Source of the DNA: Rothia aeria
Lineage (GTDB): Bacteria > Actinomycetota > Actinomycetes > Actinomycetales > Micrococcaceae
Reading direction: 5' to 3'
DNA length: 64,000 nt
Assembly (NCBI GenBank): GCA_002355935.1
Contig: AP017895.1
Coordinates: 2,418,001 to 2,482,000, forward strand
Made by a program: the position numbers and the translations under genes. The notes beneath the pieces were generated by a model. The model worked only from the letters and a program-made list of their open reading frames with translations. It did not search any database and was not told the origin of the DNA. The number at the start of each line of letters is the position of its first letter. Position 1 is the first letter of the stretch. This document shows positions 31,283-53,452 of the stretch, piece by piece.

Positions 31283-33534
<2,252 letters not shown>

Positions 33535-33794
33535 CCGCACTGAGGCGCTGAGGCTCACCCCTGCGAAAAGTGGCTTCTAGCTGCGAAACGCCCCTGCACA
33601 CATACCGGGCTGCCAGAAAGCCGCTTTTCGCAGGCCACCGAGCAGCAGACCCCACCACCAAAGTAAACGGAAGGTAACGCACAGGTGACGGAACGGGGCG
33701 TTTAATCCCCTAGAATAGTTATGGGAGGAACGGACGCCTAACAGCTCCACCCCGACCACACCTCGCCCGCCCGTTACGCACCGAGAAGGAACAC

Positions 33795-34791
33795 GTGCCT
33801 AAAACAACGTACTACTCCGCGCATACCCAACCCAACGGCCTAGCCCTCACCTACACCCCCAAAAACGCCGCTGAAATTATTGCCGCAGGCGCACTCATCT
33901 GGCGCGTACGCAACAGCAAAATCGAGCTGCTCATCATTCACCGCCCCCGCTACGACGACTGGTCATGGCCCAAAGGCAAACAGGACGCGGGCGAAACCAT
34001 CCCCGAAACAGCAATCCGTGAAATCTCCGAAGAAGTGCAGCTGCGGGTACACCTAGGGTACCCCTGGGCACCACCCGGTACAAGGTCAACAGCAAAACCA
34101 AAGACGTCTTCTACTGGGCCGCACAGCTGCCGACGGGACAGAAACCACGCGCTGACAAGGACGAAGTGGACGATATCCAGTGGGTGAGCATTAAGAAGGC
34201 ACGCACCATGCTCACCAACCCCTCAGACCTGCAGCCGCTAGAGGCGTTCGAGAACCTGTGGGCTACCAGCGGGCTGGACACGCACCCCATCATTATTGCC
34301 CGCCATACGAAAGCCAAACCGCGCGCCAACTGGTCAGCAGCCGAAGACGAGCGGCCCCTCGCTGGTACGGGTAAAAGGCAGGCGCTTGCGCTGGCCCGGT
34401 TGCTGCCGGCGTGGGAGCCTTCTCGGGTATTGTCCTCGCCTTGGCTTCGGTGTGTGCAGACCGTCGCCCCCTACGTGAACGAGTACTCCCTGACGGTGAA
34501 AGAGAAAAAGTCACTCTCAGAGGCGGGCGCAGAACGCCACCCCAAACGCACCGCAAAAACCATTGCGTCCCTCTTCGAGAAGGGCACCCCTGCCCTGGTG
34601 TGCACGCACCGTCCGGTGCTGCCGGTGGTGCTGGATGCGGTAGCCGAACACCTGCTCACCAAAAAGCAGAAGGAGCACCTGCCCGCCAAAGACCCGTACC
34701 TCGAACCGGGGACATACTGGTGCTTCAGGTCTCCGCGTACGAACGCGGCGGCATCGTATCGGCTGAAGTGGTGCGCCCGTTCACGGACTAA
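33795..34791 (+). CDS. mutT1: Nudix hydrolase fused to histidine phosphatase (MutT1-like), two frameshifts
   Basis: 332 residues after two repairs (GGG 34056-34058, GGGG 34708-34711). The N-terminal Nudix box is seen in PKGKQDAGETIPETAIREISEEVQL. The C-terminal half is a phosphoglycerate-mutase-like phosphatase with the catalytic RHTKA (RHG variant) and a second His in VCTHRPVLP. Mycobacterial MutT1 has this architecture and degrades 8-oxo-GTP and diadenosine polyphosphates. Downstream of ppk, as in several actinobacteria. GTG start after GAAGGA. Confidence 0.88.
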
Positions 34792-34948
34792 GAACCCGGC
34801 CCGTATGCCATCCATCCCTGCCCCGCTGCAGACGTGGGGCAGGGATTACTATTGCCCTGATGAGCTGTTTTGCGCTGTAGGGGCCCTGCCCCATCTACAG
34901 TACAATGGTATTTTGGCCAAGTGTCTATAGCCCAGGAGTCAAGTCACC

Positions 34949-35855
34949 ATGAGTACGCCCGCGCACCACGCCTCTGGTCAGCAGAGCATCCCAACGCCCT
35001 ATGAGGATCTGTTGCGCGAAATTCTTGATGAGAACCGTGATGCTATTGCCGCCGATGCTCAGCGCAAAGACCGTACGGGCACCGGCACGTTCGGCGTGTT
35101 TGGGCGGCAGATGCGCTTCGATCTGCGTAACTCTTTCCCCCTGATTACTACCAAGCGTGTGCACTTCAAATCGGTGGCGGTCGAGCTTCTGTGGTTCCTG
35201 CGCGGCTCCTCAAACATACGTTGGCTGCAGGAACGCGGCGTGACTATATGGGATGAATGGGCTGACGAAAATGGTGACCTCGGTCCGGTCTACGGGGTGC
35301 AGTGGCGCTCCTGGCCCACCCCGACGGCGGCACCATCGACCAGATCGCGAAAGTGATCGAATCTCTCAAAACGACCCCGTCGTCACGCCGCCACATTGTC
35401 TCGGCGTGGAACCCCGCCGAGGTTGATGAGATGGCACTGCCGCCCTGCCACGCCATGTTCCAGTTTTACGTGCACGAGCGCCCTGACGGTGTGAAGGAAC
35501 TGTCGTGTCAGCTGTACCAGCGCAGCGCCGACATGTTCTTGGGTGTACCCTTCAATATCGCCTCCTACGCCCTGCTGACCTACCTGATAGCCCACGAGGT
35601 CGGTATGGAACCCGGCGAGTTCATATGGACGGGTGGCGACTGTCATATCTACTCCAACCACCTGGAACAGGTGAAAAAGCAGCTCGGTTACGGCAACGAC
35701 CCGAGGGTAATCCCTATCCCCCGCGTGAGCCCTACCCGTACCCCAAACTCGTTATCAAAACGAAGAAACCTTCTATTTTTGATTACGAGTATGAAGACTT
35801 TGAGCTCATCGATTATAAGCATCATCCGGGGATTTCTGCCCCCATCGCGGTTTAG
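34949..35855 (+). CDS. thyA: Thymidylate synthase, two frameshifts
   Basis: Makes dTMP from dUMP with methylene-tetrahydrofolate. 302 residues after restoring C at 35319-35322 and at 35700-35702. Motifs: [19 protein letters not shown], the catalytic Cys in [44 protein letters not shown]. The last frame ends [22 protein letters not shown] follows CAGGAG. The stop is eight bases before folA, so the two form an operon. Confidence 0.92.
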
Positions 35856-35863
35856 GACAATCG

Positions 35864-36550
35864 ATGCGTGAAGATGAATCCCCCTCCCCCGCACAACCGT
35901 GCCTCGGCGCTATTTGGGCGCAGACCGATGCGGGTATTATTGGGCGCGACGGCACCATGCCCTGGCGTGCCCCCGAAGACCTTGCGCATTTCAAAACCGT
36001 CACCATGGGTAAGCCCGTCATCATGGGGCGGCGCACCTGGGAGTCTTTTCCACCGCGTTTTCGACCGTTGCCTGAGCGCACCAATATCGTCATCAGTCGC
36101 AGTATTACGGGCGATTCAGCCGCGCCTCTTAAACGCGATGGCGCGCTTTGGGTTCCGTCGCTGGATGCGGCTCTCACCCTCGCGGGCAACACGCCTTTAA
36201 CGCCCAACACTACCCAGCACTCAGATGCGGCACATCAGCGAGTTACTGCCTGGATCATTGGCGGCGGCTCAGTCTATGCGGAGGCGCTTTCCCGCGAGGA
36301 TTTACCTTCCTTTGGTCGCGTCGAGATTATCGAACGCACCTTCTTCTATTGTCAGGAAGGTAACGAGATTACGGGTGATACCTACGCCCCCGAACTCGCG
36401 GTAGAAGGATTTGTGGCTGCGGACGAACCGGTGCGATGGCGCATCCTGGGTGAAAGCGCTTGGGAGAAGAGCGAGCGCGGCTACCTGCTGGATGCTTCGG
36501 GCGGGAAAAATCCCATGTACTACTCGTTTCAGACCTTAGCCCGCCTCTGA
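35864..36550 (+). CDS. folA: Dihydrofolate reductase
   Basis: Regenerates tetrahydrofolate after the ThyA reaction. 228 residues, somewhat longer than the usual 160-190. Motifs: [29 protein letters not shown], with the substrate-binding acidic residue, then [15 protein letters not shown] for [18 protein letters not shown] and a VEIIERTF-like strand. ATG follows TTAGGA, overlapping the end of thyA closely. The insertions fall in the second half. Confidence 0.92.
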
Positions 36551-36761
36551 TGTACCTGGCGCGGAAATTCCCTACAACAACGTTCGCCTGTGCGAACGGC
36601 AAAGTGTAGTCTCGTTTGTCTGAGGTACATTCGTTCACCTCGCAACGTCTTACACCACAGCTCATCACGCTCCTCACACTTCACCTGGTCTTTCCCCATA
36701 CTGACTAGGGGTTATGACGCTGTTCCACGCGATATGTGGCACACGGGGTAGACTAGAAATT

Positions 36762-37898
36762 ATGAATTTTAATCCCGGTGACTCAGTAGGTTTGTAGGTT
36801 GGCGCGGCATGGTTGGTTCCGTGTTGATGAAGCGCATGCTTGAAGAGAGCGATTTCAACGATATTCCTCCCGTTTTTTTCACAACCTCCAATGTGGGCGG
36901 TGAAGCCCCACCTTCGACGGCACGCTTGAACCTTCTACGCTGAAGGATGCGTACGATCTGAATGAGCTTCGCCAGCATAAGATTATTGTGACCGCACAGG
37001 GCGGTGACTACACGAAAGAGGTTCACCCGAAGCTGCGCGAGTCCGGCTGGGAGGGCCTGTGGATTGATGCCGCTTCTGCCCTGCGCATGAACGATGATGC
37101 CATTATCGTGCTTGACCCAATTAACCGTGATGTGATTGACCGCGGGCTCGAATCCGGTGTGAAAGATTTTATTGGTGGCAACTGCACCGTCTCATGCCTC
37201 CTCATGGGGCTGGGCGGCCTCTTCAAACAGGGTCTGGTGGAATGGACCACCTCGATGACCTATCAGGCGGCTTCGGGAGGCGGCGCCCGTCATATGCGCG
37301 AGGTTCTGGGGCAGTTCCGCGACCTCGGTAATGAGGTGTCTGCCGAGCTTAACGATCCGGCAGCGGCGATCCTGGAGATTGACCGTAAGGTGCTCGCTAA
37401 GCAGCGTTCGGGTGAGCTGGATACCGCGCAGTTCGGGGTTCCGCTTTCCGGCTCGCTGATCCCGTGGATTGACTCTGACCTGGGCAATGGGCAGTCCCGC
37501 GAGGAATGGAAGTCTGATGCCGAGACCAATAAATTTTGGGTCTTGAGGGCGATAACCGTGTGATAATGGACGGCTTGTGTGTGCGTATCGCGGCCATGCG
37601 TTCGCATTCTCAGGCGCTCACCATGAAGCTGACCGAAGACCTGCCGGTTGCCGAGATTGAGCGCATTATCGCTGAAGATAACCAGTGGGCCCAGGTGGTG
37701 CCGAATACTAAGGATGCCACGATGGAGGGGCTGACTCCGGTCGCCGCTTCCGGCTCGCTGAATATTCCGGTGGGGCGCATCCGCAAGTTGGCGATGGGTC
37801 CGCAGTACATTAGTGCTTTCACGGTGGGCGACCAGCTGCTGTGGGGTGCCGCCGAGCCGGTGCGCCGCATGCTCAAGATCGCGGTTGGAAAGCTCTAA
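36762..37898 (+). CDS. asd: Aspartate-semialdehyde dehydrogenase, enterobacterial type, three frameshifts
   Basis: Second step of the lysine/threonine/methionine pathway and source of diaminopimelate. 379 residues after three repairs (G at 36794, CCCC 36906-36909, TTTT 37534-37537). [22 protein letters not shown], the catalytic Cys in [15 protein letters not shown], and [16 protein letters not shown] match E. coli Asd closely and differ from the short type I know from mycobacteria. TAGACT lies six bases before the ATG and there is no ribosome site, so the mRNA may be leaderless. Three breaks in 1.1 kb is the highest density in the window. Confidence 0.9.
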
Positions 37899-37919
37899 AG
37901 TAGCCTTCTCAAAGTATTC

Positions 37920-37955
37920 GTGGGCGCGGTGCCGTGTAAACGGTACCGCGCCCAC
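37920..37955 (+). terminator. Hairpin after asd
   Basis: GTGGGCGCGGTGCCGT pairs with ACGGTACCGCGCCCAC (one mismatch) around a GTAA loop, 22 bases past the asd stop. The T run is poor, but the stem is long and GC-rich. Confidence 0.7.
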
Positions 37956-39046: not shown

Positions 39047-39565
39047 ATGGACACAGCCGATTACGACACCGGTTTCACCACAGAATTCACCGCGTGGACG
39101 GTACCCCCTGAACTGGCCGTATACCCGTGGGATGATGCGCATCCTGCAGACCGGCTTAAGCCCGGGGTGATCAGTGTTCATACGCCCGGGCGGGGCTGTT
39201 ATGAGCTGTACCTTGACCCCATGCCCCGCCCCGACAGGCCGGGAGTGTGCCGTACCCATGCCAGAAGTGGGAAGCTGTACCCGTTGGGCGAAGGCGAACG
39301 GTGGGCGCATGATGTGAGTATCGAATGGCACAGCCCCACCGACGACGATATGGCCATCATAGCGTTAGGTGACACCGTTTTCTGGGACGAGCACCGCAAC
39401 GGGGTGTACACCATCGCCTATATTGGGCGGGATATGAACCTGTGGTGGGACGTGCGTGACGAAAACCCGCGCAGGATGGCGTTTATACAAGCCATAGTGG
39501 AGGCGCTACACCGCAGCATGCAAGCCAGCCCCACACTGAGTGTCCCACCTAAGAGCAAAAGCTAG
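39047..39565 (+). CDS. PWP-family paralog 1, N-terminal half only
   Basis: Not a family I recognise. 172 residues. It carries the family's opening (FTAWTVP in place of FTPWPV), the subtype-a line HPADRLKPGV, a middle beta-rich part, and the block LWWDVRDENPRRMAFIQAIVEALHRSM. It then stops after a Lys/Ser tail, about 100 residues short of the other members. No second half can be found downstream in any frame. AGAAGG precedes the ATG. First of seven paralogs; no signal peptide. Confidence 0.7.
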   Translation: MDTADYDTGFTTEFTAWTVPPELAVYPWDDAHPADRLKPGVISVHTPGRGCYELYLDPMPRPDRPGVCRTHARSGKLYPLGEGERWAHDVSIEWHSPTDDDMAIIALGDTVFWDEHRNGVYTIAYIGRDMNLWWDVRDENPRRMAFIQAIVEALHRSMQASPTLSVPPKSKS

Positions 39566-39836
39566 CTGCCAGCCGTGCCGAAGGTGCTCCGCCCGGGGTA
39601 ATCTACCGCTCCTATCTTTACTGAGCACGCCTTACTGCTGATTGCGTTGCGTGCGGAGCACCCAAGGGTTTTCCCAGTCGCAAAGGGTATCCTAAGAGGC
39701 GTGGGACGCCAGGGTGGCACGCCCCGCAATAATGCGTTTTCTTCCACTGCCGGGCGAGAGCACAAACCCCTAAGCCCCCTAACCAACCGCACAGCCCCAC
39801 GAATCTTTCGCGGGCACAGCACGACCCGAGGGAACT

Positions 39837-40682
39837 ATGACCGACCGCACCTATACTGTGACTTTTACGCCTTGGCCTATCACGGTGTATCACGCCGAAC
39901 GGATCCGCGCCTCTCAGAGGCCGTGGGAACGCATCATACCGGGCGAATTCCACATTAGCTGTTCCAATGGTGAACAGTCATGGCTTTTTCTGAACTGGGA
40001 TAACCAAGTTGAGCCGACCCAATACAGCGACTATCGAGTGGATTTCACCACCGATCCCACCACGGCCCGTATCACCAGCAGCTTCACTATCATGTTCGAT
40101 ATGCGCCGTGAGGGGATGCGCCTTCAGGCGGTGAGTAACCTCATGTGGGAGCCATATGCTTACGATGAGGAGGGCGTGATCGCTGAGGCCGCTATCGGCC
40201 CCGACCTTGAGTTCACCTGGACGGTACGTGATAGGCTGCCCGAACGCGCCCGACTGATTGAGGCAATTTTCGAGAGCGTGTATTCCAGCTTCCACGTGAC
40301 CCCGGTGGTGCTCGCCGAAGGCCACCATTTCTATAAGGAGCAGACCCTCAGCACGGGTGAGCAAGCGCTGGAAGAGATCCACCTGTGTGTGAACAGCAGC
40401 ATTACGCGCCTGTTCATTACCGACAGCTGGGATGTTGAAGAACCCGAGGGCAAACGCGTCACCGGCGGGTACGCAGCCACCATTATGAACCACGGCGGGT
40501 ATGACGGTGTGCTCACCTGGAGCACCCCCGAGGATGCACGCTACACGTTCGCACCCGATATTGTGCCGTATGAAGCTCCGCTCAGCGGCGATGCGCTGCC
40601 CCAGAAGATACAGGCGATTCTGCCGTACCTGCCAGCCGCCCCGGGTGCGTCCCTCACCGAGCATGGAACGGGTGAACAGTAA
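39837..40682 (+). CDS. PWP-family paralog 2, one unit (subtype b)
   Basis: 281 residues, function unknown. Starts YTVTFTPWPITVYHAERIR with PWERIIPGEFHI (subtype b). The centre has LEFTWTVRDRLPERARLIEAIFESV and a VVLAEGHH turn. It ends LTWSTPEDARYTF, APLSGDALPQKI and ILPYLPAAP. The sequence is acidic and aromatic-rich with alternating hydrophobic strands, suggesting a beta-rich soluble protein. The stop is two bases before the next paralog, so the two are co-translated. Confidence 0.72.
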   Translation: MTDRTYTVTFTPWPITVYHAERIRASQRPWERIIPGEFHISCSNGEQSWLFLNWDNQVEPTQYSDYRVDFTTDPTTARITSSFTIMFDMRREGMRLQAVSNLMWEPYAYDEEGVIAEAAIGPDLEFTWTVRDRLPERARLIEAIFESVYSSFHVTPVVLAEGHHFYKEQTLSTGEQALEEIHLCVNSSITRLFITDSWDVEEPEGKRVTGGYAATIMNHGGYDGVLTWSTPEDARYTFAPDIVPYEAPLSGDALPQKIQAILPYLPAAPGASLTEHGTGEQ

Positions 40683-40684
40683 CC

Positions 40685-42277
40685 GTGGCCTCTTCTCCTT
40701 CCGTGCACTTCATCCCTTGGCCTGTGGCTGGCCCGCAAAGAATTAGTGAGGGCACGCCGTTGGGGGCGCATCCAGCTCTGCACCTGAAGCCCGGGCTACT
40801 CACCCTCACAGCAGGCGGCAGCGCGCACAGTTTATTCCTGGTGCCGCCCGCGTTTACCCCGGAGCACCCGTATGGTTTCAGCGCTGAGGCCACACCAATC
40901 ATCCTGCCGGATGAGCCCGAGCCGCAGGGCATGTGCTTCCATTTCACGGCCGATGAGAGCCAGCTGCTGGTTCGTGTGTGTGGTTCCTCCCTGTGGGAGC
41001 AAGAAACGCATTATGCAACCGCCGCCATAGACCGCGCCCTGAAGCTCATATGGGCTAAACGCGACACGAATACAGAGCGCATGGCCTGTATTGAGGCAGC
41101 CGTGACAGCGATACATCAGGGGATGCTCACCGACCCGCACCTTCTTGGCCCCGGTGAGTACGCTAGGGTGGGCTCCCCCGACGGGTTCATTTCATACCAC
41201 TTGCATTCGGCTGCTGCGCCCGGGCGGATTACCCGTGTTCTTGAGGTGGACCAGCGCTACGGCAACCCCGAGCGTCGCACGGTGACGGAGTACTGCGCGC
41301 ACGTACTGCCCGATCATGGGTGCCTGGTGTGGCAGGTGGCGGCTGAGGATGCCCGCTACTGGTCAGATGCCATGAGCCCTCTCTTTGATGCTCCGCTGAC
41401 TGGGGAGCAGATTCCCGAGTTTGTGCGGGAAATCCTGCCGTATCTGCCGTCTGCACCGATCGCTTGCGAATATCCGCAGCCGCCGCAGGTCACCGACTAC
41501 AGGGTGACGTTCACGCCGTGGCCGGTGGCTGCTGCGCAGGCGGAGCGCATGAGCGCGGCACCGGATCTGTGGGGACACCTGGTGCCGGGCGAGCTGAGCG
41601 TGGAACGTGCAGACGGTAAACCTGAAAACCTGAGCCTGTATATGGCCGTTGATGATGCCCACACCCTGGTGCCTGGCTGTTTCTTCCAGGTCCCGCCCGA
41701 GCTTCCTGAGGACCCCGCAGGAGGTCTCGCCTTCTCTTTTCGCCGTACCGCGCAGCATGGGGAACTATTACTGGTGGCAAGCGCCGCTGAGACCGTATGG
41801 TCCCCCAACGGGGTGGGAGAGATCGCGGTGGCACGCCTTGATTCGTCACTGAACCTCACCTGGGAGGTGCGGGATACGGTTCCGGGCCGAGCCGAACTGA
41901 TTGAGGCCGTGTTTGAGGTGATGCACACCATCCCCGGCACGGTGCCGCCAATAGTCCCTGAGGGAGAGTGCCTGCACCTGCCTCATAGGTTCGATGTGGC
42001 TGAGGAGTTCGGCACCTACCATTATTGCCATGACGGGGTGATGGTGCGCGCATTTATGGTGGGGGCTGGCTGGGTGGACGGTGATGTGCAGCTATACCAG
42101 GCGCAGGTACAAACCACCGACGGGACGGGTGTGCTCGTGTGGGGCACCGGTTCCTATGGTGCCCGGTACTGGAAGGCGCCGGGGCATCAGGCGTATTTCC
42201 CGCCGCTGACCGGCGATGAGATTCCTGCCCCCGTGCGGGCACTGAGTGCGCACCTACCGCCAGCGGGCAGCGAGTAG
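40685..42277 (+). CDS. PWP-family paralog 3, tandem two-unit protein (a + b)
   Basis: 530 residues made of two complete units. Unit a (about 1-265): FIPWPVAGPQRI, HPALHLKPGLLTL, LIWAKRDTNTERMACIEAAV, EDARYW, APLTGEQIPEF, ILPYLP. Unit b (about 268-530): YRVTFTPWPVAAAQAERM, LWGHLVPGELSV, LTWEVRDTVPGRAELIEAVF, GARYW, PPLTGDEIPAPV, AHLPPA. The units are joined by a short Pro-rich linker. GTG start two bases after the previous stop without its own strong ribosome site, so translational coupling is likely. Function unknown. Confidence 0.72.
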   Translation: MASSPSVHFIPWPVAGPQRISEGTPLGAHPALHLKPGLLTLTAGGSAHSLFLVPPAFTPEHPYGFSAEATPIILPDEPEPQGMCFHFTADESQLLVRVCGSSLWEQETHYATAAIDRALKLIWAKRDTNTERMACIEAAVTAIHQGMLTDPHLLGPGEYARVGSPDGFISYHLHSAAAPGRITRVLEVDQRYGNPERRTVTEYCAHVLPDHGCLVWQVAAEDARYWSDAMSPLFDAPLTGEQIPEFVREILPYLPSAPIACEYPQPPQVTDYRVTFTPWPVAAAQAERMSAAPDLWGHLVPGELSVERADGKPENLSLYMAVDDAHTLVPGCFFQVPPELPEDPAGGLAFSFRRTAQHGELLLVASAAETVWSPNGVGEIAVARLDSSLNLTWEVRDTVPGRAELIEAVFEVMHTIPGTVPPIVPEGECLHLPHRFDVAEEFGTYHYCHDGVMVRAFMVGAGWVDGDVQLYQAQVQTTDGTGVLVWGTGSYGARYWKAPGHQAYFPPLTGDEIPAPVRALSAHLPPAGSE

Positions 42278-42383
42278 CCGCCTAAGGATTCTGCGCATTA
42301 GCGGAATTCTGCACCCTGAGAACATATACAATACAGCCAGCTAATCATGCGTTATAACGCTATATGAAAGGAATAAGCAGAGC

Positions 42384-43301
42384 ATGACCGACGACCTTTT
42401 TCTGACCGAGTTCATCCCCTGGCCCGTGCCCGCCGGGTGGGTTCAGCGGCAGCAGCAGTTTAAGCATCCGGCGGCGCGCCTTATCCCCGGGGAGCTGCAC
42501 ATTCCCTTTGCCTGGGAGGAAGGGGTGGAAAGCGGCGAGAAGGGTTGCATCTTGCGGTACCAGGTGGTTTGGGAAGGGCTCACCCCGGACATGTTTGAGA
42601 ATGGCAACCGGTGGGGCTTCCCGTACCGTGCGGGGTACCTGTCGGTATTTCCGTTCTCACAGGCCGCCGACGATGGGCTCATTTTCGGGATGGATATTAC
42701 CGAAACTGAGCTGCATCTGACCGCTGAACAGGATAATTATTTCTGGTCCCCGCAAGAGGGCCCCGACTATGAAGAATGGGCTAAAACCAGCCTTCTTGCC
42801 CGGGTGCGTATCGGTGAGGATATGACCCCGGTGTGGGAGGTGCATGATACGAACCCGTATCGCCGCCGCTACCTTGAGAACGTGCTGGGTGCACTGGTGG
42901 AGAGCCTGTCGCTGACCCCGGTTGAGCTTGCTGAGGGTGAGGCACACCTGGTGGAGGATTCTGAGTACGACTGGGGTGGTCCCGTAGGCTCTCTGCATTA
43001 CGCCACTACCCTGGTGGCCGATAGGTTCAGCGAAGGCGGCTGCACGCGTGTTGAGAAGCCGCAGATGCTTCGGCTTGTGGCCTGTATGCACCCGATTGGT
43101 ATTGGTGCACCGGACCCAGTGTATGTGGCACAGTTTTTTAACACTGCGGAACCGGAGTATCTGGCGTGGAGCACTGGCGAGGATGCCCGCTACTGGCCGA
43201 AGGAATTGAGCCCGGCGGCTTTTCCTCCGCTGACGGGTGAGGACCTTCCGGAGCATATTCGGCAGCTCATTGCGCATCTGCCGCTAGTACAAGACGCATA
43301 A
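42384..43301 (+). CDS. PWP-family paralog 4, one unit with insert
   Basis: 305 residues, unknown function. FIPWPVPAGWVQRQ is followed by HPAARLIPGELHI, mixing features of both subtypes. The middle has an insert of about 25 residues before PVWEVHDTNPYRRRYLENVLGALVESL. The end is LAWSTGEDARYWP, PPLTGEDLPEHI, LIAHLPLV. GAAAGGAA precedes the ATG, and the 106-base AT-rich gap upstream may hold a promoter. Confidence 0.72.
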   Translation: MTDDLFLTEFIPWPVPAGWVQRQQQFKHPAARLIPGELHIPFAWEEGVESGEKGCILRYQVVWEGLTPDMFENGNRWGFPYRAGYLSVFPFSQAADDGLIFGMDITETELHLTAEQDNYFWSPQEGPDYEEWAKTSLLARVRIGEDMTPVWEVHDTNPYRRRYLENVLGALVESLSLTPVELAEGEAHLVEDSEYDWGGPVGSLHYATTLVADRFSEGGCTRVEKPQMLRLVACMHPIGIGAPDPVYVAQFFNTAEPEYLAWSTGEDARYWPKELSPAAFPPLTGEDLPEHIRQLIAHLPLVQDA

Positions 43302-43586
43302 ACCACTGCGTTGAGCCGTGTGCTGCGGGCCGTAATGCACGGCCAGCAACACACATTCCTATACACAATTTGTATTTTTATACTTTAAGGGAGCGATATA
43401 TACCGTAGAGGATTAATGATTACTCTCAAATAATTCGACAGGTTTAAAGATATATACGTAAAATACTCTAAAATTATTCAGGAATATGGCAGAAAAACGG
43501 GCCGCTCTAAGCTATCATATATGCATAACTATTTAGGGCATGACACCAATCACCACACCGATAAATAACCCGTTATAGGAACACAT
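43302..43586. promoter_or_regulatory. AT-rich spacer between PWP paralogs 4 and 5
   Basis: 285 bases, far richer in A and T than anything nearby between about 43360 and 43530, with several TATA-like stretches. No gene is visible. It probably contains the promoter of paralog 5; the composition suggests foreign DNA or a silenced, regulated promoter. Confidence 0.45.
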
Positions 43587-44404
43587 GTGAATAGCTTCCC
43601 GTACACCATACAATTCACACCCTGGCCAGTCACCGACGAATATAAAGTCTTCTACACCGCCCCGAACCCGGGGCGCATCCGGCGGAGTACCTGCAGCCTG
43701 GCGTGCTGCGCATCGCACACACAAGAATCAGCGACCCCACCCACGAACTGTACCTGGTGCCGCCCATATTCACGCCCAATCACGATGCTGACTTCGTGGG
43801 GTACCTGCACAGCCCCGACGCTGACCAGTGGGCACCCGACATTGAGTTCAAATACTTTGCAAGAGGCGGCGAACTGATGATTCGTGCCCGAAGCCGCCTG
43901 CACTGGGACGACCCGGCCGTGAGCCGCTTCGCCCTAGCCAGTATTGATGCGCAGCTTAACCTGCATTGGGAGCAGCGGGATGAGAACCCGCGCCGCCGGG
44001 ACTACACCGAGGCCGTCATCGGCGCCCTGCATAAGAGTATGCGCCACCCCGCCCGCACCATAGCCGACGGGCAGTGCGTGGCTGTGCGCTCCCCCGACGG
44101 TGAGGCGTCCTCGTATCATCTGCGGGAAGGTAACGATATTATTCGGGTCATTAACATTACCGAATACTCCAACAGCCAGACCCGCAACGCGAAAGCCGGG
44201 TACTATGGGCGGGTGCTGAGCTACTTTGAGGAGGACACGGCCCTGGCATGGCACGCCGCCGAGCAGGATGCACGGTGCTGGCCGTACGGCATGAACCCGC
44301 TGTTTGATACTCCGCTCACCGGCAGCGATATTCCGGAGTGGCATGTGCAGCCCATTCTGCGGCATCTGCCTGATTCGTCGATCCGCAGGCAGCGCGTGGG
44401 GTAG
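43587..44404 (+). CDS. PWP-family paralog 5, one unit (subtype a), frameshifted
   Basis: 272 residues after adding a G at 43670-43673. The first frame reads YTIQFTPWPVTDEYKVF; the second continues HPAEYLQPGVLRI, ELYLVPPIFTP (shared with paralog 3 unit a), LHWEQRDENPRRRDYTEAVIGALHKSM, DARCWP, TPLTGSDIPEW and ILRHLP. GTG start after ATAGGAA. Unknown function, no membrane segment. Confidence 0.7.
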
Positions 44405-44440
44405 CTGCGCCTATAGCGCCAGCAGAGGGTATCGGTTCGG

Positions 44441-44482
44441 GCAGAGGATATTTTCTCCTCCGGTGAGACAAATATCCTCTGC
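44441..44482 (+). terminator. Hairpin after PWP paralog 5
   Basis: GCAGAGGATATTT and its exact complement (13 bp) flank a 16-base loop, 37 bases beyond the stop of paralog 5. No T run follows, so it may be a weak terminator or a protein-binding site. Confidence 0.5.
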
Positions 44483-44608
44483 TCGCGTATATAGTATAGG
44501 GTTACTATAGATGCTAAAGTCAGCGGCACAGGGTGCCGCGGCACACCAACCACCTGCCCAAGACGCCAGTTACAAATACAGTGTCTGTCACCTCGTAAAG
44601 GATCACCC

Positions 44609-45426
44609 GTGAGCGAGTATTCCTACACCATAACGTACGTTCCGTGGCCCCTAGCCGCTTCCTCAAACGCCGGTGTACATCCGGCCTCGCGACTGTTCCC
44701 CGGAATTTTCACGATTGACCGGGCGCTAACCGATGAAGGCCCCATAAGGGCGGCGGCACCGTCGAGGTGGATTATGAATTCGTAGACTATTTCTTCTTTA
44801 ACCCTCCCGCGTATAACCCGCTGAACCCCAAGAATTTTCGGGGGTTCTCAAATGAGGGCGCCTACGATTTTGAGGACCAGGAACTATTCTTTGAGTACTC
44901 TGCCGACTCCGAGAACCTGTATATTGCGGCTGTCAGCGACACCGGCGACGACCGGGTGTGCTACGTGCGGGGCCGAATCGAGCCCACCCTCAAAGTGGTG
45001 TGGGAAATCCGCAGCGACGACCCGGAGTTTATGGAATTCATGGCCGCCATACTGGATGCGGTGCGCACCAGCCTGGGGGTGACCCCGCCGCATCTGAGCG
45101 AGGGCGAAATGATGGAGGTGACGGGCACCATTGAGCGCGTTGAACCTATTGTTGGAGCCTCATACCATACGGTAGCCGGGGGCGTGGTGGTGCGTTTTGT
45201 GAATGTGGAATTCGTGCCGCACCACCCCCTCACGCAGGCCGCATCGTATTTTGCCAAGGTGGTGGGGCGCGGGGTGCCCAGTGGGAGCGTAGTGTGGAGC
45301 GGCCCACGTCGTGTAGTGTTCTGGGAAGGTGCCGACGATGACGGTGATAACCCTCTGCACGGCAAGAGTATTCCTGCCCCGGTGAATTATGCGGTAAAAC
45401 GCCTGCCCGTTGTGGAGGGCGCTTAA
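44609..45426 (+). CDS. PWP-family paralog 6, one unit (subtype a), frameshifted
   Basis: 272 residues after adding a C at 44740-44743. Start YTITYVPWPLAAS with HPASRLFPGIFTI; the second frame has KVVWEIRSDDPEFMEFMAAILDAVRTSL, VVWSGPRRVVFW and LHGKSIPAPV. It is the most divergent member: DARYW is replaced and the last motif is weak (KRLPVV). GTG start at 44609 about eight bases after AAAGGA. It is followed by an MFS transporter gene on the same strand. Confidence 0.68.
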
Positions 45427-45593
45427 ACGCGCGGTTTTCCAGTCTGGGCTGGGCGTAATATTTCTTCACTATTGACGGTTTTTACCCGCAAATTGGGAGG
45501 GTGCTTACCTTCACACACTATGTTTGAGTCATAAACACCCTAACCTGGTGTATGCTGAGATACGAAGAAAATATCGCACCAAAGGTATCCACC

Positions 45594-46948
45594 ATGAAAA
45601 CCGCTGCAACAGCAGAATCCCCCGCCACACGTAACCTCTCACAACGTCTCGAATCCCTGCCCTTCACCCGCAAACATACCAAGCTCCTGGGCGTCACCGG
45701 TATCGGCTGGGCGCTCGACGCCATGGATGTTGGGCTGATCTCCTTCATCATGGCGGCACTGACCAAACAGTGGTCGCTCTCCCCCACCGAAACAAGCTGG
45801 TTAGGCTCCATTGGCTTTTGGGTATGGCTCTGGGCGCCACCGTCGGCGGGCTTCTCGCCGACCGTTTTGGACGACGCTACATTTTCGCCGCAACGCTGCT
45901 CATCTACGGTTTGGCGACGGGCGCATCCGCACTCGCCGGTTCACTGGCCGTTTTGATGGTTTTCCGGTTTATTGTGGGGCTGGGGCTCGGGGCTGAGCTG
46001 CCGGTCGCATCCACGTTGATGTCGGAATTTTCGCCGCGCGCTATTCGTGGGCGTGTGGTCGTTATTTTGGAGGCGTTTTGGGCGCTCGGATGGATTCTTG
46101 CGGCGCTTATCGGCACCTTTGTTGTGCCGAACCCAAACGGCTGGCGGTGGGCGCTTGCCATCGGCGTGATCCCGGCACTGTATTCGCTGATTATTCGCTG
46201 GGGAACACCCGAATCCGTGCGGTTCTTAGAGTCGAAAGGGCGCACTGACGAGGCAGAACGAGTGGTTGCCGAGTTTGAGAGCTCTGCGGCCCTCAGCACA
46301 TGTGCTCACGCGGATGAAACCAACCGTGACAATGCACCTGAGACCCCTGCCAACGATGCCCAGGAGGCAACCTCCATCTGGTCGGCTCCGCTGCGTAAAC
46401 GCACGCTGGCGCTGTGTACCGTATGGTTCTGCATTAACCTCTCGTACTACGGGGCGTTTATCTGGATACCCTCGCTGCTGAGCGCACAGGGTTTCAGCCT
46501 AGTGAAGTCCTTCGCGTTTACCCTGATTATGACCTTGGCGCAGCTGCCCGGCTATGCAGTGGCCGCCTACCTGATTGAGAAGTGGGGGCGCCGAGCCACC
46601 CTCGCCGTATTTTTAGCTGGTTCAGCAGGCGCGGCGGTATGCTACGGCCTCTCACATTCGGATTTCTACATTATCCTCAGCGGGTGCTTCCTCTCGTTCT
46701 TCAACCTGGGCGCATGGGGCGCACTCTACGCCATCAGCCCGGAAGTATTCCCCACCCGACTGCGCGGCACCGGCACCGGCACGGCGGCCGGACTGGGGCG
46801 CATCGCCTCGATTCTGGCGCCGCTTATCGTTCCGCCGCTCATCTCTTTCGGCGGCACCGGAGTACTGTTCGCTGTTTTCGCGGCGGCATTCCTTCTGGCG
46901 GCGGTTACTACCTTCGCGCTGCCCGAAAAGCGCGGGAAATCGCTCTAG
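45594..46948 (+). CDS. MFS transporter, frameshifted
   Basis: Proton-coupled permease of the major facilitator superfamily, 451 residues after adding a T at 45816-45819. Twelve hydrophobic segments. GWALDAMDVGLISF opens helix 1; LADRFGRRYIF is the loop 2-3 motif; RFIVGLGLGAELPVASTLMSEF and PTRLRGTGTG in the second half are typical of the NiaP/aromatic-acid:H+ and sugar-porter groups. The substrate cannot be named. It splits the PWP cluster; no clear link is visible. Confidence 0.85.
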
Positions 46949-46990
46949 CTGCTAAAACCTTCAACACAGGAATGATGTGAAGCATAGTGT

Positions 46991-47028
46991 GCCGAGAAGG
47001 TGGGAATCTCTCACCTTCTCGGCTTTTT
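46991..47028 (+). terminator. Rho-independent terminator after the MFS gene
   Basis: GCCGAGAAGGTG pairs exactly with CACCTTCTCGGC around a nine-base loop and is followed by TTTTT. It lies about 40 bases beyond the MFS stop. Confidence 0.93.
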
Positions 47029-47252
47029 CTTTGTTTATCAGGTGCTCGTGGAGTCGCAGAAGACATAGGGTGCATAATCTGCGGGGCACGCCGCAGGCAC
47101 ACACTATGAGGTGCTGACGTATTTCCAGGTGCCGATACGTTATGATGGCTAAACATCGCGTGTTACCGCCTCATTAATGTGTACAGGGTGGGGCTCAGTG
47201 CGTATCTCAGGTGAGATAGAACGGTCTAGACATCAACCTCAAGGAGCGCGGC

Positions 47253-48980
47253 ATGGCAGAAACCCCCGCAGTCACCTATATTCCCTGGCCAATTGCCCAC
47301 ACGCCCGCGCCGCTTGAGAACGGTGAACCGGTCGCAGGCAGGCATCCTGCTGAGTATCTGGGACCCGGGGTGCTGCACTATATCGGTTCGGAATTTCACC
47401 TGATGGCGGAGCTGAACCCCCAACCTTTCGACCCCGAAAACCCGCATCGGTTTAGGGGTGAACTGGTGCATCGGTACACGTATTTCTCAGGCAATATCAC
47501 GTTTAGTTTCAAAGCTGATGAGGATTATCTTTACTTCACGGCGCACGTTTTTCTGGCCTGGCAAGAGCCCTCTGACCGCACGTACGCGCGCGCCCGGGTG
47601 GATCGTAATTTCGCTTTTCACTGGGAGCAGCACGATGATGACCCGCAGCGTTCGGTCTATATTGAGGCGGTCTTCATGGCACTGTACCGCAGCCTCAGCG
47701 TTGAGCATACGGCGCTTGAGGACGGTGAGTTCCTAGACCTGAACGAAGACACGTGTTACTCATACCATATGCGCCAGGGTGACAATATTACTCGGCTGGC
47801 GTACGTTACCGACTACAGTTCTCGAACATACCTTGACGTGACGACCGACTACCGGGCAACGGTTTTGAGCTACTGCCACCCTCCGGCTCAGCTGGCGTGG
47901 AGCGTTCCAACCGAAGATGCGCGCTACACATTCGAACATACCGATCCCCTCATCTATCCTCCGGACACGGGCGAGGATATTCCCGAGTATGTGCGCCGCA
48001 TACTCCCCCATCTGCCGACAGCGCCCTACCGGCAAGCCGCCCGTTCCTACCCGCCCGCCTCAGAGTATGGTGCGGTCTTTACGCACTGGCCTATGACGGT
48101 TCAGCAGGGTGAGGGTATTCGTGGCACCCAGTATCCGTGGCAGAAGCTCGTTTCCGGGGAGTTTTTAATTCAAAGCCCGCAAAGCGTCCCCTTCAGAATG
48201 TATCTGGACGCCTGCGAACCCGATTGGGATTCCATGAAGGGCGACCGCCAAGTCTACGCCGAGCTAATGCCCATCTCGGGGATTATGCCTAACTTGAATC
48301 ATGCGCGGCCCTGGTTTGGCGTAGATTTTACGCTCGTCATGCGCCGCTGGAATAACCGTTTGGTGTTTGTGGCGGAGCATCTGACCCCGTGGCGTGCCAC
48401 CGATTGGGAGGTGTGCGCCGTCGCGATCCTAGATGCGGAAGGAAACCTGGTCTGGGAGCTTCGCGATGATGTTGCTGGGCGCGGCTCCTATATCGAGGCA
48501 CTGGTGGGGCATATTGTGGATTCTCTGGGAACCGAGCCGCCCGTGCTCGCCCCGGGCGAAGGCAAGGTTCTCTACGACCAGGACGGCCAGGTCTCTTCCG
48601 TGCACGTCAATACGGGTGAAGCCATGCTGCGGGCGCTCATCACGCGTATCTGGTACGGGGTAAACCCGACGACCGGTGAGAGGGCACCGTACCTGTATGA
48701 GGCGCGGGTCAAAGATCAGTTTGATGAGGATTCCAGGGGCGGGTTCAGCACGATCGCCTGGAGCTCACCCGAGAAGTTCTACTACTGGAGCTGGGATCGG
48801 GTGCCCGGGTTCGTGCCTGCGGTAACCGACCCCGAGATTCTGCGCCGCGACGAGGTGGATCTGCTGATTCCGCATCTTCCGGGTGCCCCCGGCGTACCCT
48901 CACAGGAGAATGAAGGCGATGCAGCGGTGCCGTGGTTTTACGAGGCTTCAGGTGCTGTTTCTGACAATCCTGAGCCGTAA
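47253..48980 (+). CDS. PWP-family paralog 7, tandem two-unit protein (a + b)
   Basis: 575 residues. Unit a: VTYIPWPIAHTPAP, HPAEYLGPGVLHY, FHWEQHDDDPQRSVYIEAVF, LAWSVPTEDARYTF, PPDTGEDIPEYV, ILPHLPTAP. Unit b: AVFTHWPMTVQQGEGI, PWQKLVSGEFLI, LVWELRDDVAGRGSYIEALV, IAWSSPEKFYYW, LIPHLPGAP, then an acidic tail. Same a-b order as paralog 3. CAAGGAG precedes the ATG. It stands alone after the MFS terminator. Function unknown. Confidence 0.72.
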   Translation: MAETPAVTYIPWPIAHTPAPLENGEPVAGRHPAEYLGPGVLHYIGSEFHLMAELNPQPFDPENPHRFRGELVHRYTYFSGNITFSFKADEDYLYFTAHVFLAWQEPSDRTYARARVDRNFAFHWEQHDDDPQRSVYIEAVFMALYRSLSVEHTALEDGEFLDLNEDTCYSYHMRQGDNITRLAYVTDYSSRTYLDVTTDYRATVLSYCHPPAQLAWSVPTEDARYTFEHTDPLIYPPDTGEDIPEYVRRILPHLPTAPYRQAARSYPPASEYGAVFTHWPMTVQQGEGIRGTQYPWQKLVSGEFLIQSPQSVPFRMYLDACEPDWDSMKGDRQVYAELMPISGIMPNLNHARPWFGVDFTLVMRRWNNRLVFVAEHLTPWRATDWEVCAVAILDAEGNLVWELRDDVAGRGSYIEALVGHIVDSLGTEPPVLAPGEGKVLYDQDGQVSSVHVNTGEAMLRALITRIWYGVNPTTGERAPYLYEARVKDQFDEDSRGGFSTIAWSSPEKFYYWSWDRVPGFVPAVTDPEILRRDEVDLLIPHLPGAPGVPSQENEGDAAVPWFYEASGAVSDNPEP

Positions 48981-49658: not shown

Positions 49659-49919
49659 CTAATCCTCAAAATCCACAGGACGGCGTTGGGCACGGCTGCG
49701 CGGCTGTAGTTCTAATTCAATATCGGCGGCGTCGAGTGGCATCAAAGCGTCTAAACCACTCCGAACGGATTTAGACTGCAAAGTCTTCTCATACTCGGTA
49801 TAGGTCATGAGCACGTATGCGGGTTCGCCCCGATTGGTAATAATGACTGGTTCGGTTTGTGCCGTTTTCTGTGCTTGGCTGACGTTCTGCTTGAACTCTT
49901 GATTGGTCATCACGGTCAT
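49659..49919 (-). CDS. Phd/YefM-type antitoxin, without visible toxin
   Basis: 86 residues. The N-terminal DNA-binding part has NQEFKQNVSQAQKTA followed by VIITNRGEPAYVLMTYTEYEKTL, the classic Phd/YefM core. The C-terminus (PRSRAQRRPVDFED) resembles antitoxins that partner PIN-domain VapC toxins. The next gene downstream is convergent, so no toxin follows. It may be an orphan left after toxin loss or act in trans. AAGGAG precedes the ATG. Confidence 0.85.
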   Translation of the reverse strand: MTVMTNQEFKQNVSQAQKTAQTEPVIITNRGEPAYVLMTYTEYEKTLQSKSVRSGLDALMPLDAADIELELQPRSRAQRRPVDFED

Positions 49920-52448: not shown

Positions 52449-53452
52449 ATGACTAACCAGCAGATTCCGTTCTCGGTGCTGGATCTTATGCCCACCCGCA
52501 AAGACCGCACCCACCACCAGACCATGCGCTACACTCTTGAGGCGGCGCAGGCGGTGGAACGGTTCGGGTTCAACCGGTACTGGGTGGCCGAGCACCATAA
52601 TGCTGGTTCGCTGCTTTCTTCGGCGACGGTGGTGGTGATGGCTGAGATTGCCGCCGCAACCGAGCGTATCCGGGTGGGGTCGGGCGGTATTATGCTCCCC
52701 AACCACGCCCCGTATGTGGTAGCAGAACAGTTTGGTACCCTTGAGGCGTTCCACCCCGGGCGCATTGATTTGGGGTTGGGCCGCGCACCCGGCACCGACC
52801 CAATGACCGCCCAGGCGCTGCGGCGGGATGATTCAGCGGCCATGAATTTCCCCGCCGAGGTAGAAGAGATTCAGCGCTATCTGGGTGAGCCCTCCCCCAT
52901 GCGGCGGGTGCACGCTATCCCCGGGCAGGGCTCGAACGTGCCCCTGTATATTCTGGGCTCGTCCACGTTTGGGGCGTCGTTGGCGGCGCAGCTGGGGCTG
53001 CCGTTTGCGTTTGCCTCCCATTTTGCGCCCGCAGCGCTGACTGAGGCTATTAACCTGTACCGCACCAATTTCACGCCGTCGCGTGTGCTGTCTGAACCGT
53101 ATGTGATAGTGGGTGCGGCCGCGATGCTCGCCGATACCGATGAGCAGGCCCGGCGGCTTTTCACCACCATGCAGCAGCATTTTTGGGTGTTATTCGCGGC
53201 CGCACGCTCTACGCCCCGCCGGTTGAGACTATGGATAAGCTGTGGAGCCCTATTGAGAAGCAGCGCGTCGATTCTATGCTCGCCGAGGCGATCGTTGGGT
53301 CCGCTGATACTGCGCAGCGGCAGCTCACTAACTTGGTGGAGCGCACCGGCGCGAATGAGGCGATCGTGATGAGCGCACCGTGGGAGTTTGAGGACCGTAT
53401 CCGAAACTACGAGCTGCTTTCACAGCTGCCGATTTTCCAGAAAACCAACTAG
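52449..53452 (+). CDS. Luciferase-like (LLM-class) flavin-dependent monooxygenase, frameshifted
   Basis: 334 residues after adding a T at 53177-53181. FSVLDLMPTRK, FNRYWVAEHHNAGSLLSSATVV, RIRVGSGGIMLPNHAPYVVAEQFGTLEA and RIDLGLGRAPGTDP identify the bacterial luciferase-like family (YhbW/MsnO8 group). The second frame continues IRGRTLYAPPVETMDKLW. F420- or FMN-dependence cannot be decided. ATG follows GAAGGAG. Divergent from hadA. Confidence 0.88.

What the first reader, a model, noticed from the sequence alone, without database searches (positions are those of the whole stretch)
39047..48980. Unrecognised protein family amplified to nine units in seven adjacent genes
Genes at 39047, 39837, 40685, 42384, 43587, 44609 and 47253 share one unit of about 270 residues. 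Each opens with (F/Y)xPWP or a close variant. Next comes an (HPA or PW)-x-x-L-x-PG line. A block of the form L-x-W-x-x-RD-x-x-P-x-R-x-x-x-IEA follows mid-unit, then DARYW, then LTGexIP and finally LPhLP. Paralogs are very divergent outside these motifs, so the amplification is old or under diversifying selection. There is no signal peptide or membrane helix. I know of no family with this motif set. Clusters of divergent paralogs are typical of immunity, recognition or antagonism systems, but nothing here proves that.
Basis: partly seen in the sequence, partly recalled or inferred. Interest (0 to 1): 0.85.

Follow-up and report, generated by a model that had tools for sequence, protein, structure and literature searches.

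The report
Orphan toxin-immunity gene array in Rothia
A human mouth bacterium carries nine old, very different copies of an undescribed protein whose relatives in other bacteria sit directly behind a small secreted RNase-like toxin gene, so the row of copies is most likely a collection of antidotes against neighbours' toxins.

Summary
Nine units of one family lie at 39047-48980 in what is, by exact genome length, Rothia aeria JCM 11412. Left out in turn, each is recovered at E 1.9e-25 or better. Corrections: unit 1 has only its first half, the genes at 43587 and 44609 are frame-broken, and a transporter gene interrupts the row. At least six nearby genes are broken too, so sequencing indels are likely. 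No curated model matches above its cut-off.

Most likely it is a homogeneous polyimmunity locus. Relatives occur in 17 of 35 Rothia genomes and in four genomes of two other genera. Six loci (two of them orthologous) hold a small secreted toxin with an Ntox21-like domain; in all six the next gene belongs to this family. Two were found by searching for the toxin alone. A profile of only the nine window units ranks these six genes and one orphan relative first among 86 ORFs. R. aeria itself gave no such toxin.

So: cytoplasmic immunity proteins kept without their toxin. Not shown: binding, neutralisation, or which toxin each unit answers. The kind is known; the immunity family and its toxin pairing appear new.

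The parts
39047..39565 (+). unit 1, half-length gene (172 aa; N-terminal part only)
39837..40682 (+). unit 2, intact gene (281 aa); AlphaFold model pLDDT 83.4, pTM 0.79
40685..42277 (+). units 3a (40685-41488) and 3b (41489-42277), intact two-domain gene (530 aa), starts 2 nt after the stop of unit 2
42384..43301 (+). unit 4, intact gene (305 aa)
43587..44404 (+). unit 5, frame-broken: first motif in one frame from 43587, rest open from 43646 in another
44609..45426 (+). unit 6, frame-broken: first motif in one frame from 44609, rest open from 44737 in another
45552..46948 (+). MFS transporter gene (recalled name), frame-broken, interrupts the array; not part of the family
47253..48980 (+). 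units 7a (47253-48056) and 7b (48057-48980), intact two-domain gene (575 aa); orthologue in G005 86% identical; AlphaFold model of 7a pLDDT 86.9, pTM 0.83

Best explanation
The cluster is a homogeneous polyimmunity locus. Each unit is a cytoplasmic immunity protein, and two genes carry two units each (polyimmunity proteins). Each unit would bind and block one variant of a small, Sec-secreted, Ntox21-like RNase toxin made by related or neighbouring actinobacteria. Elsewhere in the family the immunity gene is still the direct partner of such a toxin. In R. aeria no such toxin was found, and divergent immunity copies have been kept at one chromosomal site as protection against other strains. Shown: the units are one family; relatives follow the toxin gene directly at all six toxin loci found; the toxins have a signal peptide (by eye) and most of the Ntox21 key residues; searches of the R. 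aeria genome gave no toxin match. Inferred: binding, neutralisation, RNase activity, one unit per toxin variant, and a selective benefit of the array.
For: Toxin-immunity architecture in relatives. G003 (L044): secreted 148-aa protein, weak Ntox21 match, overlapped by the family gene. G030 (L066): the orthologous pair, so not independent of G003. G030 second locus (L087): frame-broken toxin pieces, then a family gene. Another genus: G960 (L113), and G812 (L120) and G799 (L121), found by the toxin profile alone and then seen to have a family gene next. Toxin domain invariants across four loci include D, H, WKL, S, G; published Ntox21 motif K, [DS]xDxxxH, K, RxG[ST], RxxD (PMC3482391, passage); Ntox21-type CdiA-CT of E. 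cloacae active site D203, D205, H207, K214 (PMC9086364 table, passage; family assignment in PMC7033585, passage). Homology: nine-unit profile A1 vs three toxin-paired proteins of the other genus 5.7e-6, vs rplA-side members 1.4e-7; 39 decoy comparisons all E >= 0.08. Rank test: with A1 the seven target genes take ranks 1-7 of 86 ORFs, worst 0.016, best non-target 0.14. No toxin match in G000. Polyimmunity features as defined in PMC3482391 section 39.
Against: No unit of the window has a toxin beside it, so its own function rests on relatives. Many relatives are also unpaired: the single copies between the transporter and murB in four genomes and the copies beside rplA in nine. Links between window units and toxin-paired proteins are weak and lie mainly in the C-terminal half: 51 columns for the Rothia pairs, 134 for the other genus; the two toxin-paired groups share only 37 columns, E 9.3e-4. 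The family profile A12 had not reported the G799 and G812 proteins at E<=0.05 in 396 genomes of the order (six candidates a genome scored), and G960 came in only at 0.034, the level of hits I dismissed elsewhere. The toxin domain stays under Pfam's Ntox21 cut-off (best 19.4 of 25 bits; the G960 and G030:C3 domains not matched to Ntox21). Three of six toxin genes are frame-broken. No complex, binding or activity was tested. No clear structural match was found.
Confidence: 0.74

Rival explanations
1. Immunity array, but against other toxins. The unit is a versatile scaffold like SUKH; only one branch answers Ntox21-like toxins, and the R. aeria units cover unrelated toxins.
For: Units are very divergent (19-36%); the toxin-paired branches are themselves distant; published versatile immunity families such as SUKH behave so (PMC3482391). 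A DUF2599 secreted protein lies between rplA and a family member in three genomes.
Against: Every Ntox21-like toxin found has a family member next, in two genera; DUF2599 has its own small neighbour in between in L091 and L095.
Confidence: 0.3
2. A housekeeping or regulatory protein family (for example ligand or protein binding) of Rothia. Toxin-paired members are a recruited side branch and the array is a lineage-specific expansion for another purpose.
For: Single copies kept at two fixed chromosomal sites (between the transporter and murB; beside rplA) without an Ntox21-like toxin; purifying selection.
Against: Patchy presence (17 of 35 Rothia genomes at E<=0.01); large copy-number change between near species; pairing with toxins in two genera.
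Confidence: 0.15
3. A decaying gene cluster without present function.
For: Unit 1 is half-length; units 5 and 6 are frame-broken; remnants of copies in G005 and G030.
Against: Housekeeping genes around are broken in the same assembly, pointing to sequencing indels; four genes with six units are intact; the 47253 gene has an intact orthologue with dN/dS 0.26.
Confidence: 0.06

Closest known systems
Polyimmunity loci and polyimmunity proteins (SUKH, Imm6, Imm11, Imm28, Imm33, Imm36, Imm41 arrays; Zhang et al. 2012, PMC3482391 section 39)
   Same: Tandem divergent paralogues of one cytoplasmic (inferred) immunity family, same strand, no toxin gene among them, fused multi-domain members, copy number varying between close genomes.
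   Different: The immunity family matches no curated model here; an MFS gene interrupts the row; gaps of up to 285 nt; strain-level variation not examined.
CdiA-CT/CdiI of Enterobacter cloacae (Ntox21 toxin, 16S rRNase; PMC9086364, PMC7033585, passages)
   Same: Toxin C-terminal domain with a D-x-D...H...K pattern, immunity gene next to it.
   Different: The intact toxins here are 148-170 aa with a Sec signal peptide (by eye), not a two-partner filament; the listed immunity partners of Ntox21 are Imm-Barstar and Imm41, neither of which matched the units.
RdnE/RdnI of Rothia dentocariosa and Proteus (PMC12483513, passages)
   Same: Immunity protein of an oral Rothia; protection across species shown for RdnI.
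   Different: RdnI is described as built of alpha-helices and answers a PD-(D/E)XK DNase; the units here are mostly beta.
Acquired interbacterial defence / orphan immunity genes of gut Bacteroidales (search listing only)
   Same: Orphan immunity genes kept to resist neighbours' toxins.
   Different: Those answer type VI effectors in Gram-negatives; here Gram-positive hosts and small secreted toxins.

Membership tests
Homogeneous polyimmunity locus | several tandem genes of one immunity family | tested here: met
   nine units in one row, leave-one-out E 1.9e-25 or better; that the family is an immunity family is inferred from toxin pairing in relatives
Homogeneous polyimmunity locus | no toxin gene or cassette inside the array | tested here: met
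   no Ntox21 or toxin-profile match in G000; the only other gene seen inside is an MFS transporter
Homogeneous polyimmunity locus | same orientation, small gaps | tested here: inconclusive
   all on the + strand; gaps of 271, 2, 106, 285 and 204 nt, then 1826 nt with the MFS gene
Homogeneous polyimmunity locus | number of genes varies between close strains | tested here: inconclusive
   between species met: nine units in G000, three in G005, one in G012, G013, G014 and G027 at this site; strains of one species not available
Polyimmunity protein | two or more immunity domains in one chain | tested here: met
   40685-42277 and 47253-48980 each hold two units
Immunity partner of Ntox21-like toxins | gene directly downstream of the toxin gene, same strand | tested here: met
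   six of six toxin loci in relatives, two of them orthologous; not so for the window genes themselves, which have no toxin
Immunity partner of Ntox21-like toxins | binds and neutralises the toxin | not testable with these tools
   needs a bench test
Ntox21 (PF15526), for the partner toxins | score over Pfam's curated cut-off | tested here: not met
   at most 19.4 bits against 25; hence 'Ntox21-like' only
Ntox21 (PF15526), for the partner toxins | conserved residues K, [DS]xDxxxH, K, RxG[ST] | tested here: inconclusive
   [DS]xDxxxH complete in four of six loci (L044, L066, L113, L121); L087 and L120 keep the second D and the H; WK in all six (in L121 in a second frame); R-x-G-S in L120, R-x-A-S in four, neither in L087
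Imm41 / Imm-Barstar (published Ntox21 partners) | sequence match to the family | tested here: inconclusive
   no such Pfam match for the seven window genes or pieces at E<=1 or for 17 members at E<=0.5, but I did not check that an Imm41 model is in the library
RdnI | alpha-helical protein | tested here: not met
   both AlphaFold models are mainly beta-strand; RdnI described as several alpha-helices (passage)

The most novel reading that the evidence does not exclude
The units are a new immunity superfamily with a fold not represented among solved structures. R. aeria has built up an antidote repertoire from it: each divergent unit, including each half of the two-domain proteins, blocks a different subtype of a new class of Sec-secreted Ntox21-like mini-toxins that circulate among human-associated and other actinobacteria. 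Three of six toxin genes are frame-broken, two of them between leader and toxin domain and one at a run of eight G, so the toxins themselves may be switched on and off.
Probability: 0.3. Interest if true: 0.72.

Novelty: new member of a known kind. Interest (0 to 1): 0.58.

Why it matters
Polyimmunity arrays show which toxins a bacterium meets. In the human mouth, where Rothia lives, Gram-positive antagonism by small secreted protein toxins is little mapped (my judgement). The finding gives a searchable immunity family (nine divergent templates), a partner toxin with intact examples (G003, G030, G812) and a simple co-expression test. It also suggests that unannotated rows of divergent paralogues in commensals can be read as toxin-exposure records.

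Tried and rejected
Led nowhere: the search for related loci with A2 in genome contigs and with the 575-aa protein in viral contigs found no relative; the 575-aa protein found nothing in plasmids or phages; A3 in 396 genomes of the phylum found only G000; PHROGs gave only weak single-member matches. For the unit 7a model Foldseek gave no match at E<=0.001 in PDB (best 0.0098) or BFVD (best 0.019), and VIA-align gave nothing at Z>=5 for either model; the unit 2 model was not put through Foldseek's own listing. OspA-like, polo-box and START-like rows at Z 3-5 were not used. A weak or missing match does not show a new fold.

Rejected: diversifying selection at orthologue level. Recent tandem amplification (identities at most 36%). 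Toxin hits in G032 (inside a LysX-like 1176-aa protein by eye), G001 (E 0.47, two stops, judged by score only) and G442 (E 8.7e-4, no toxin-like ORF), taken as chance and dropped before the count of six. Family hits in G1179, G1213 and G1226 (looked at), G849 (inside an unrelated 462-aa frame), G1196 (judged by E-value only) and G025 and G034 (E 0.51 and 0.39), taken as chance; G960 at a like E-value (0.034) was kept because of its toxin neighbour and later HMM-HMM scores. The tree of 20 unit rows (unit 1 left out) resolved only four branches, so I make no claim on the branching of the units.

Not checked: other R. aeria strains; whether Pfam holds Imm41; public protein databases outside the tools. 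The family and phylum searches used A3, which misses the rplA-side branch (for example G028 scored nothing), and only 6-8 candidates a genome were scored there, so rarity outside Rothia is not established. That the family or its toxin link is not described is judged only from the libraries above and the paper searches (open-licence PMC papers).
Full report
What is there. The window lies at 2418001-2482000 of a one-contig genome of 2,588,680 bp. That length is the published length of Rothia aeria JCM 11412, a PacBio RS II / HGAP assembly (PMC5201055, whole text read). At 39047-48980 on the + strand there are nine units of one family. Each unit, left out of the profile in turn, is recovered at E 1.9e-25 to 7.8e-60 against 302 of the 348 window ORFs (those starting inside the array were dropped), with no other hit at E<=10. 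Pairwise identities are 19-36%, median 26%. In the whole genome the family was found only here.

Corrections to the finding. Unit 1 (39047-39565) has only the N-terminal part, and no convincing C-terminal half follows. The genes at 43587 and 44609 each change frame after the first motif. A transporter gene lies between units 6 and 7. At least six nearby genes that are single frames in relatives are broken here too (thyA, asd, MFS, ppk, nudix, LLM-class oxidoreductase; names recalled), so indel errors are a likely cause of the broken units. Four genes (39837, 40685, 42384, 47253) are intact and hold six units; two of them hold two units each.

No known family. None of the seven genes or pieces matched Pfam above a cut-off (one weak DUF7007 match, 14.8 of 27 bits), or NCBIfam or PADLOC at E<=1. 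Seventeen family members gave only single-member weak Pfam matches (best E 0.0062). No solved structure is related by sequence. AlphaFold gives unit 7a pLDDT 86.9, pTM 0.83, and unit 2 pLDDT 83.4, pTM 0.79; both used the same 12 sequences, so they are not independent. Both show the same order of elements: a strand, short helices, six or seven strands and a long helix, then six strands and a short helix. Structure searches found no clear relative, which does not prove a new fold.

Distribution. With the nine-unit profile, 10 of 35 Rothia genomes matched at E<=0.01. With a wider profile (A8, which includes some of these relatives), 17 of 35 matched at E<=0.01 and 19 of 35 at E<=1. In four genomes (G012, G013, G014, G027) one copy lies between the same transporter and murB as in the window. 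G005 (2,506,025 bp; probably R. dentocariosa, recalled) has three units at the same site, two of them in a protein orthologous to 47253, and a remnant; its 20-kb region does not align as DNA to units 1-6 of the window. A second branch of 303-356-aa proteins lies beside rplA in nine genomes: directly after it in six, behind a DUF2599 gene in three. Outside Rothia the family was seldom found: 4 of 295 genomes of the family and 1 of 396 of the phylum matched, all Rothia, but with a profile that misses the distant branch. In the order 6 of 396 matched at E<=0.05: three Rothia, G888 (2.9e-6), G960 (0.034) and a chance-level G849 (0.024). In the class 6 of 364 matched, two Rothia and four at chance level (E 0.010-0.034).

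The clue to function. In G003 the distant member at L044:7512-8288 overlaps by 11 nt the end of a gene for a 148-aa protein with a signal peptide (by eye) and a C-terminal domain weakly like Ntox21 (17-19 bits, cut-off 25). A search of 35 Rothia genomes with Ntox21 rang in two, G003 and G030, both under the cut-off, and G030 has the orthologous pair. Beside another family hit in G030 lay a third, frame-broken toxin, about 200 nt before the family gene, which the two-toxin profile also finds (E 6.9e-4 and 0.0079). The order search showed a fourth pair in G960, of another family of the order, where leader and toxin domain lie in different frames. A profile of the four toxin domains alone (A14) was then run over 396 genomes of the order: 4 of 396 matched at E<=0.01. 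G960 was already in the model and G442 looks like chance. G812 and G799 are new, and in both the next gene downstream carries the family's motifs: W-E-(P/A)-W-P, then G-A near the start, and W-R-x-G-x-x-P-x-L-D-x-P near the end. In G812 the toxin stop and the next start overlap by one nt; in G799 16 nt lie between them. So six of six toxin loci, in two genera, are followed by a family member on the same strand; G003 and G030:C6 are orthologous, so at most five are independent.

Is the downstream gene really the same family? HMM-HMM comparison of the nine window units alone gave E 1.4e-7 with the rplA branch, 5.7e-6 with the three non-Rothia toxin-paired proteins and 1.9e-4 (51 C-terminal columns) with the Rothia toxin-paired proteins. 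39 decoy comparisons (8 reversed, four each with A1 and A12; 30 column-shuffled; one unrelated array) gave 0.08 to 0.97. The L087 member is also linked to the rplA branch by BLAST (1e-15). In a second control the nine-unit profile was compared with all 86 called ORFs of the seven loci. The six toxin-following genes and the orphan in G888 took ranks 1 to 7 (E 2.8e-9 to 0.016), and the best other ORF had 0.14; the 17-row Rothia profile put the same seven on top. Caveat: L044, L112 and L113 had been found through a family profile, and L066 and L087 by both routes; only L120 and L121 are free of that selection (ranks 3 and 6). The family profile had not reported those two at E<=0.05.

The toxin. 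Invariant positions of the four-locus domain alignment include D, H, WKL, S and G. Zhang et al. 2012 list for Ntox21 K, [DS]xDxxxH, K, RxG[ST], RxxD and immunity partners Imm-Barstar and Imm41 (PMC3482391, passages). The Ntox21 member of E. cloacae is a 16S rRNase with active residues D203, D205, H207, K214 (PMC9086364 table, passage; PMC7033585, passage). [DS]xDxxxH is complete in four of the six toxins, and the other two keep its second D and H. The toxins are therefore probably RNases, but they stay under Pfam's cut-off, so I call them Ntox21-like. Three of the six are frame-broken: G030:C3, G960, and G799 at a run of eight G.

Reading. A row of divergent, cytoplasmic immunity paralogues on one strand with no toxin among them, and with two-domain members, is what Zhang et al. 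call a homogeneous polyimmunity locus with polyimmunity proteins (PMC3482391, section 39 read in full). G000 gave no toxin match. The low identity within the row and the smaller, different set in G005 fit a store of different antidotes rather than a dosage amplification. Orthologous units are under purifying selection (dN/dS 0.12-0.27; between G000 and G005 DUF1697 0.04, MaoC 0.05, murB and the MFS piece 0.08, PGPGW gene 0.10, folA 0.26), and dS along the 47253 gene varies from 0 to 1.7, which suggests recombination. Cross-species protection by an immunity protein of Rothia has been shown for the dissimilar RdnI (PMC12483513, passages).

What remains open. Nothing here shows binding or rescue. 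The window units may answer Ntox21-like toxins or, as a versatile scaffold, others. Copies beside murB and rplA have no Ntox21-like toxin and keep their place, so a further role cannot be excluded.

Noticed in passing
window 31283-37955, 45552-46948, 52464-53449: At least six housekeeping genes (ppk, nudix, thyA, asd, MFS, LLM-class oxidoreductase; names recalled) are frame-broken where relatives are intact, pointing to residual indels in this PacBio-only assembly.
   Followed up: partly
L036:949-4101 (G005): Another row of four divergent paralogues (203-253 aa, low GC3) directly upstream of thyA, without a Pfam match (four tested) or PADLOC match (three tested); perhaps a second immunity array.
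   Followed up: partly
L091:6095-7229, L092:3610-4329, L095:6094-7558: A secreted DUF2599 protein (Pfam match tested for L095) lies between rplA and the family member in three Rothia genomes, with a 168-196-aa membrane-like protein after it in L091 and L095.
   Followed up: partly
L087:4309-4756, L113:7658-8107, L121:4701-5071: Three of six Ntox21-like toxin genes are frame-broken, two between leader and toxin domain and one at a run of eight G; decay, sequencing error or phase switching.
   Followed up: no
L041:6963-9158 and L043:16513-17349 (G033): A family member follows a lipoprotein of unknown function and an I36-like inhibitor gene; a paralogue (by eye) of that lipoprotein lies on another contig.
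   Followed up: no
window 47253-48980 against L036:10911-12665: Synonymous divergence changes from about 0 to 1.7 along the gene, as if pieces had been exchanged between lineages.
   Followed up: no
L036:8895-9098 and L088:5020-5157: Short remnants of family members at the array site of G005 and beside rplA in G030, suggesting loss of copies.
   Followed up: partly
window 49659-49919 (-): ORF that looks like a Phd/YefM-type antitoxin (by eye) just beyond the array; no partner was looked for.
   Followed up: no
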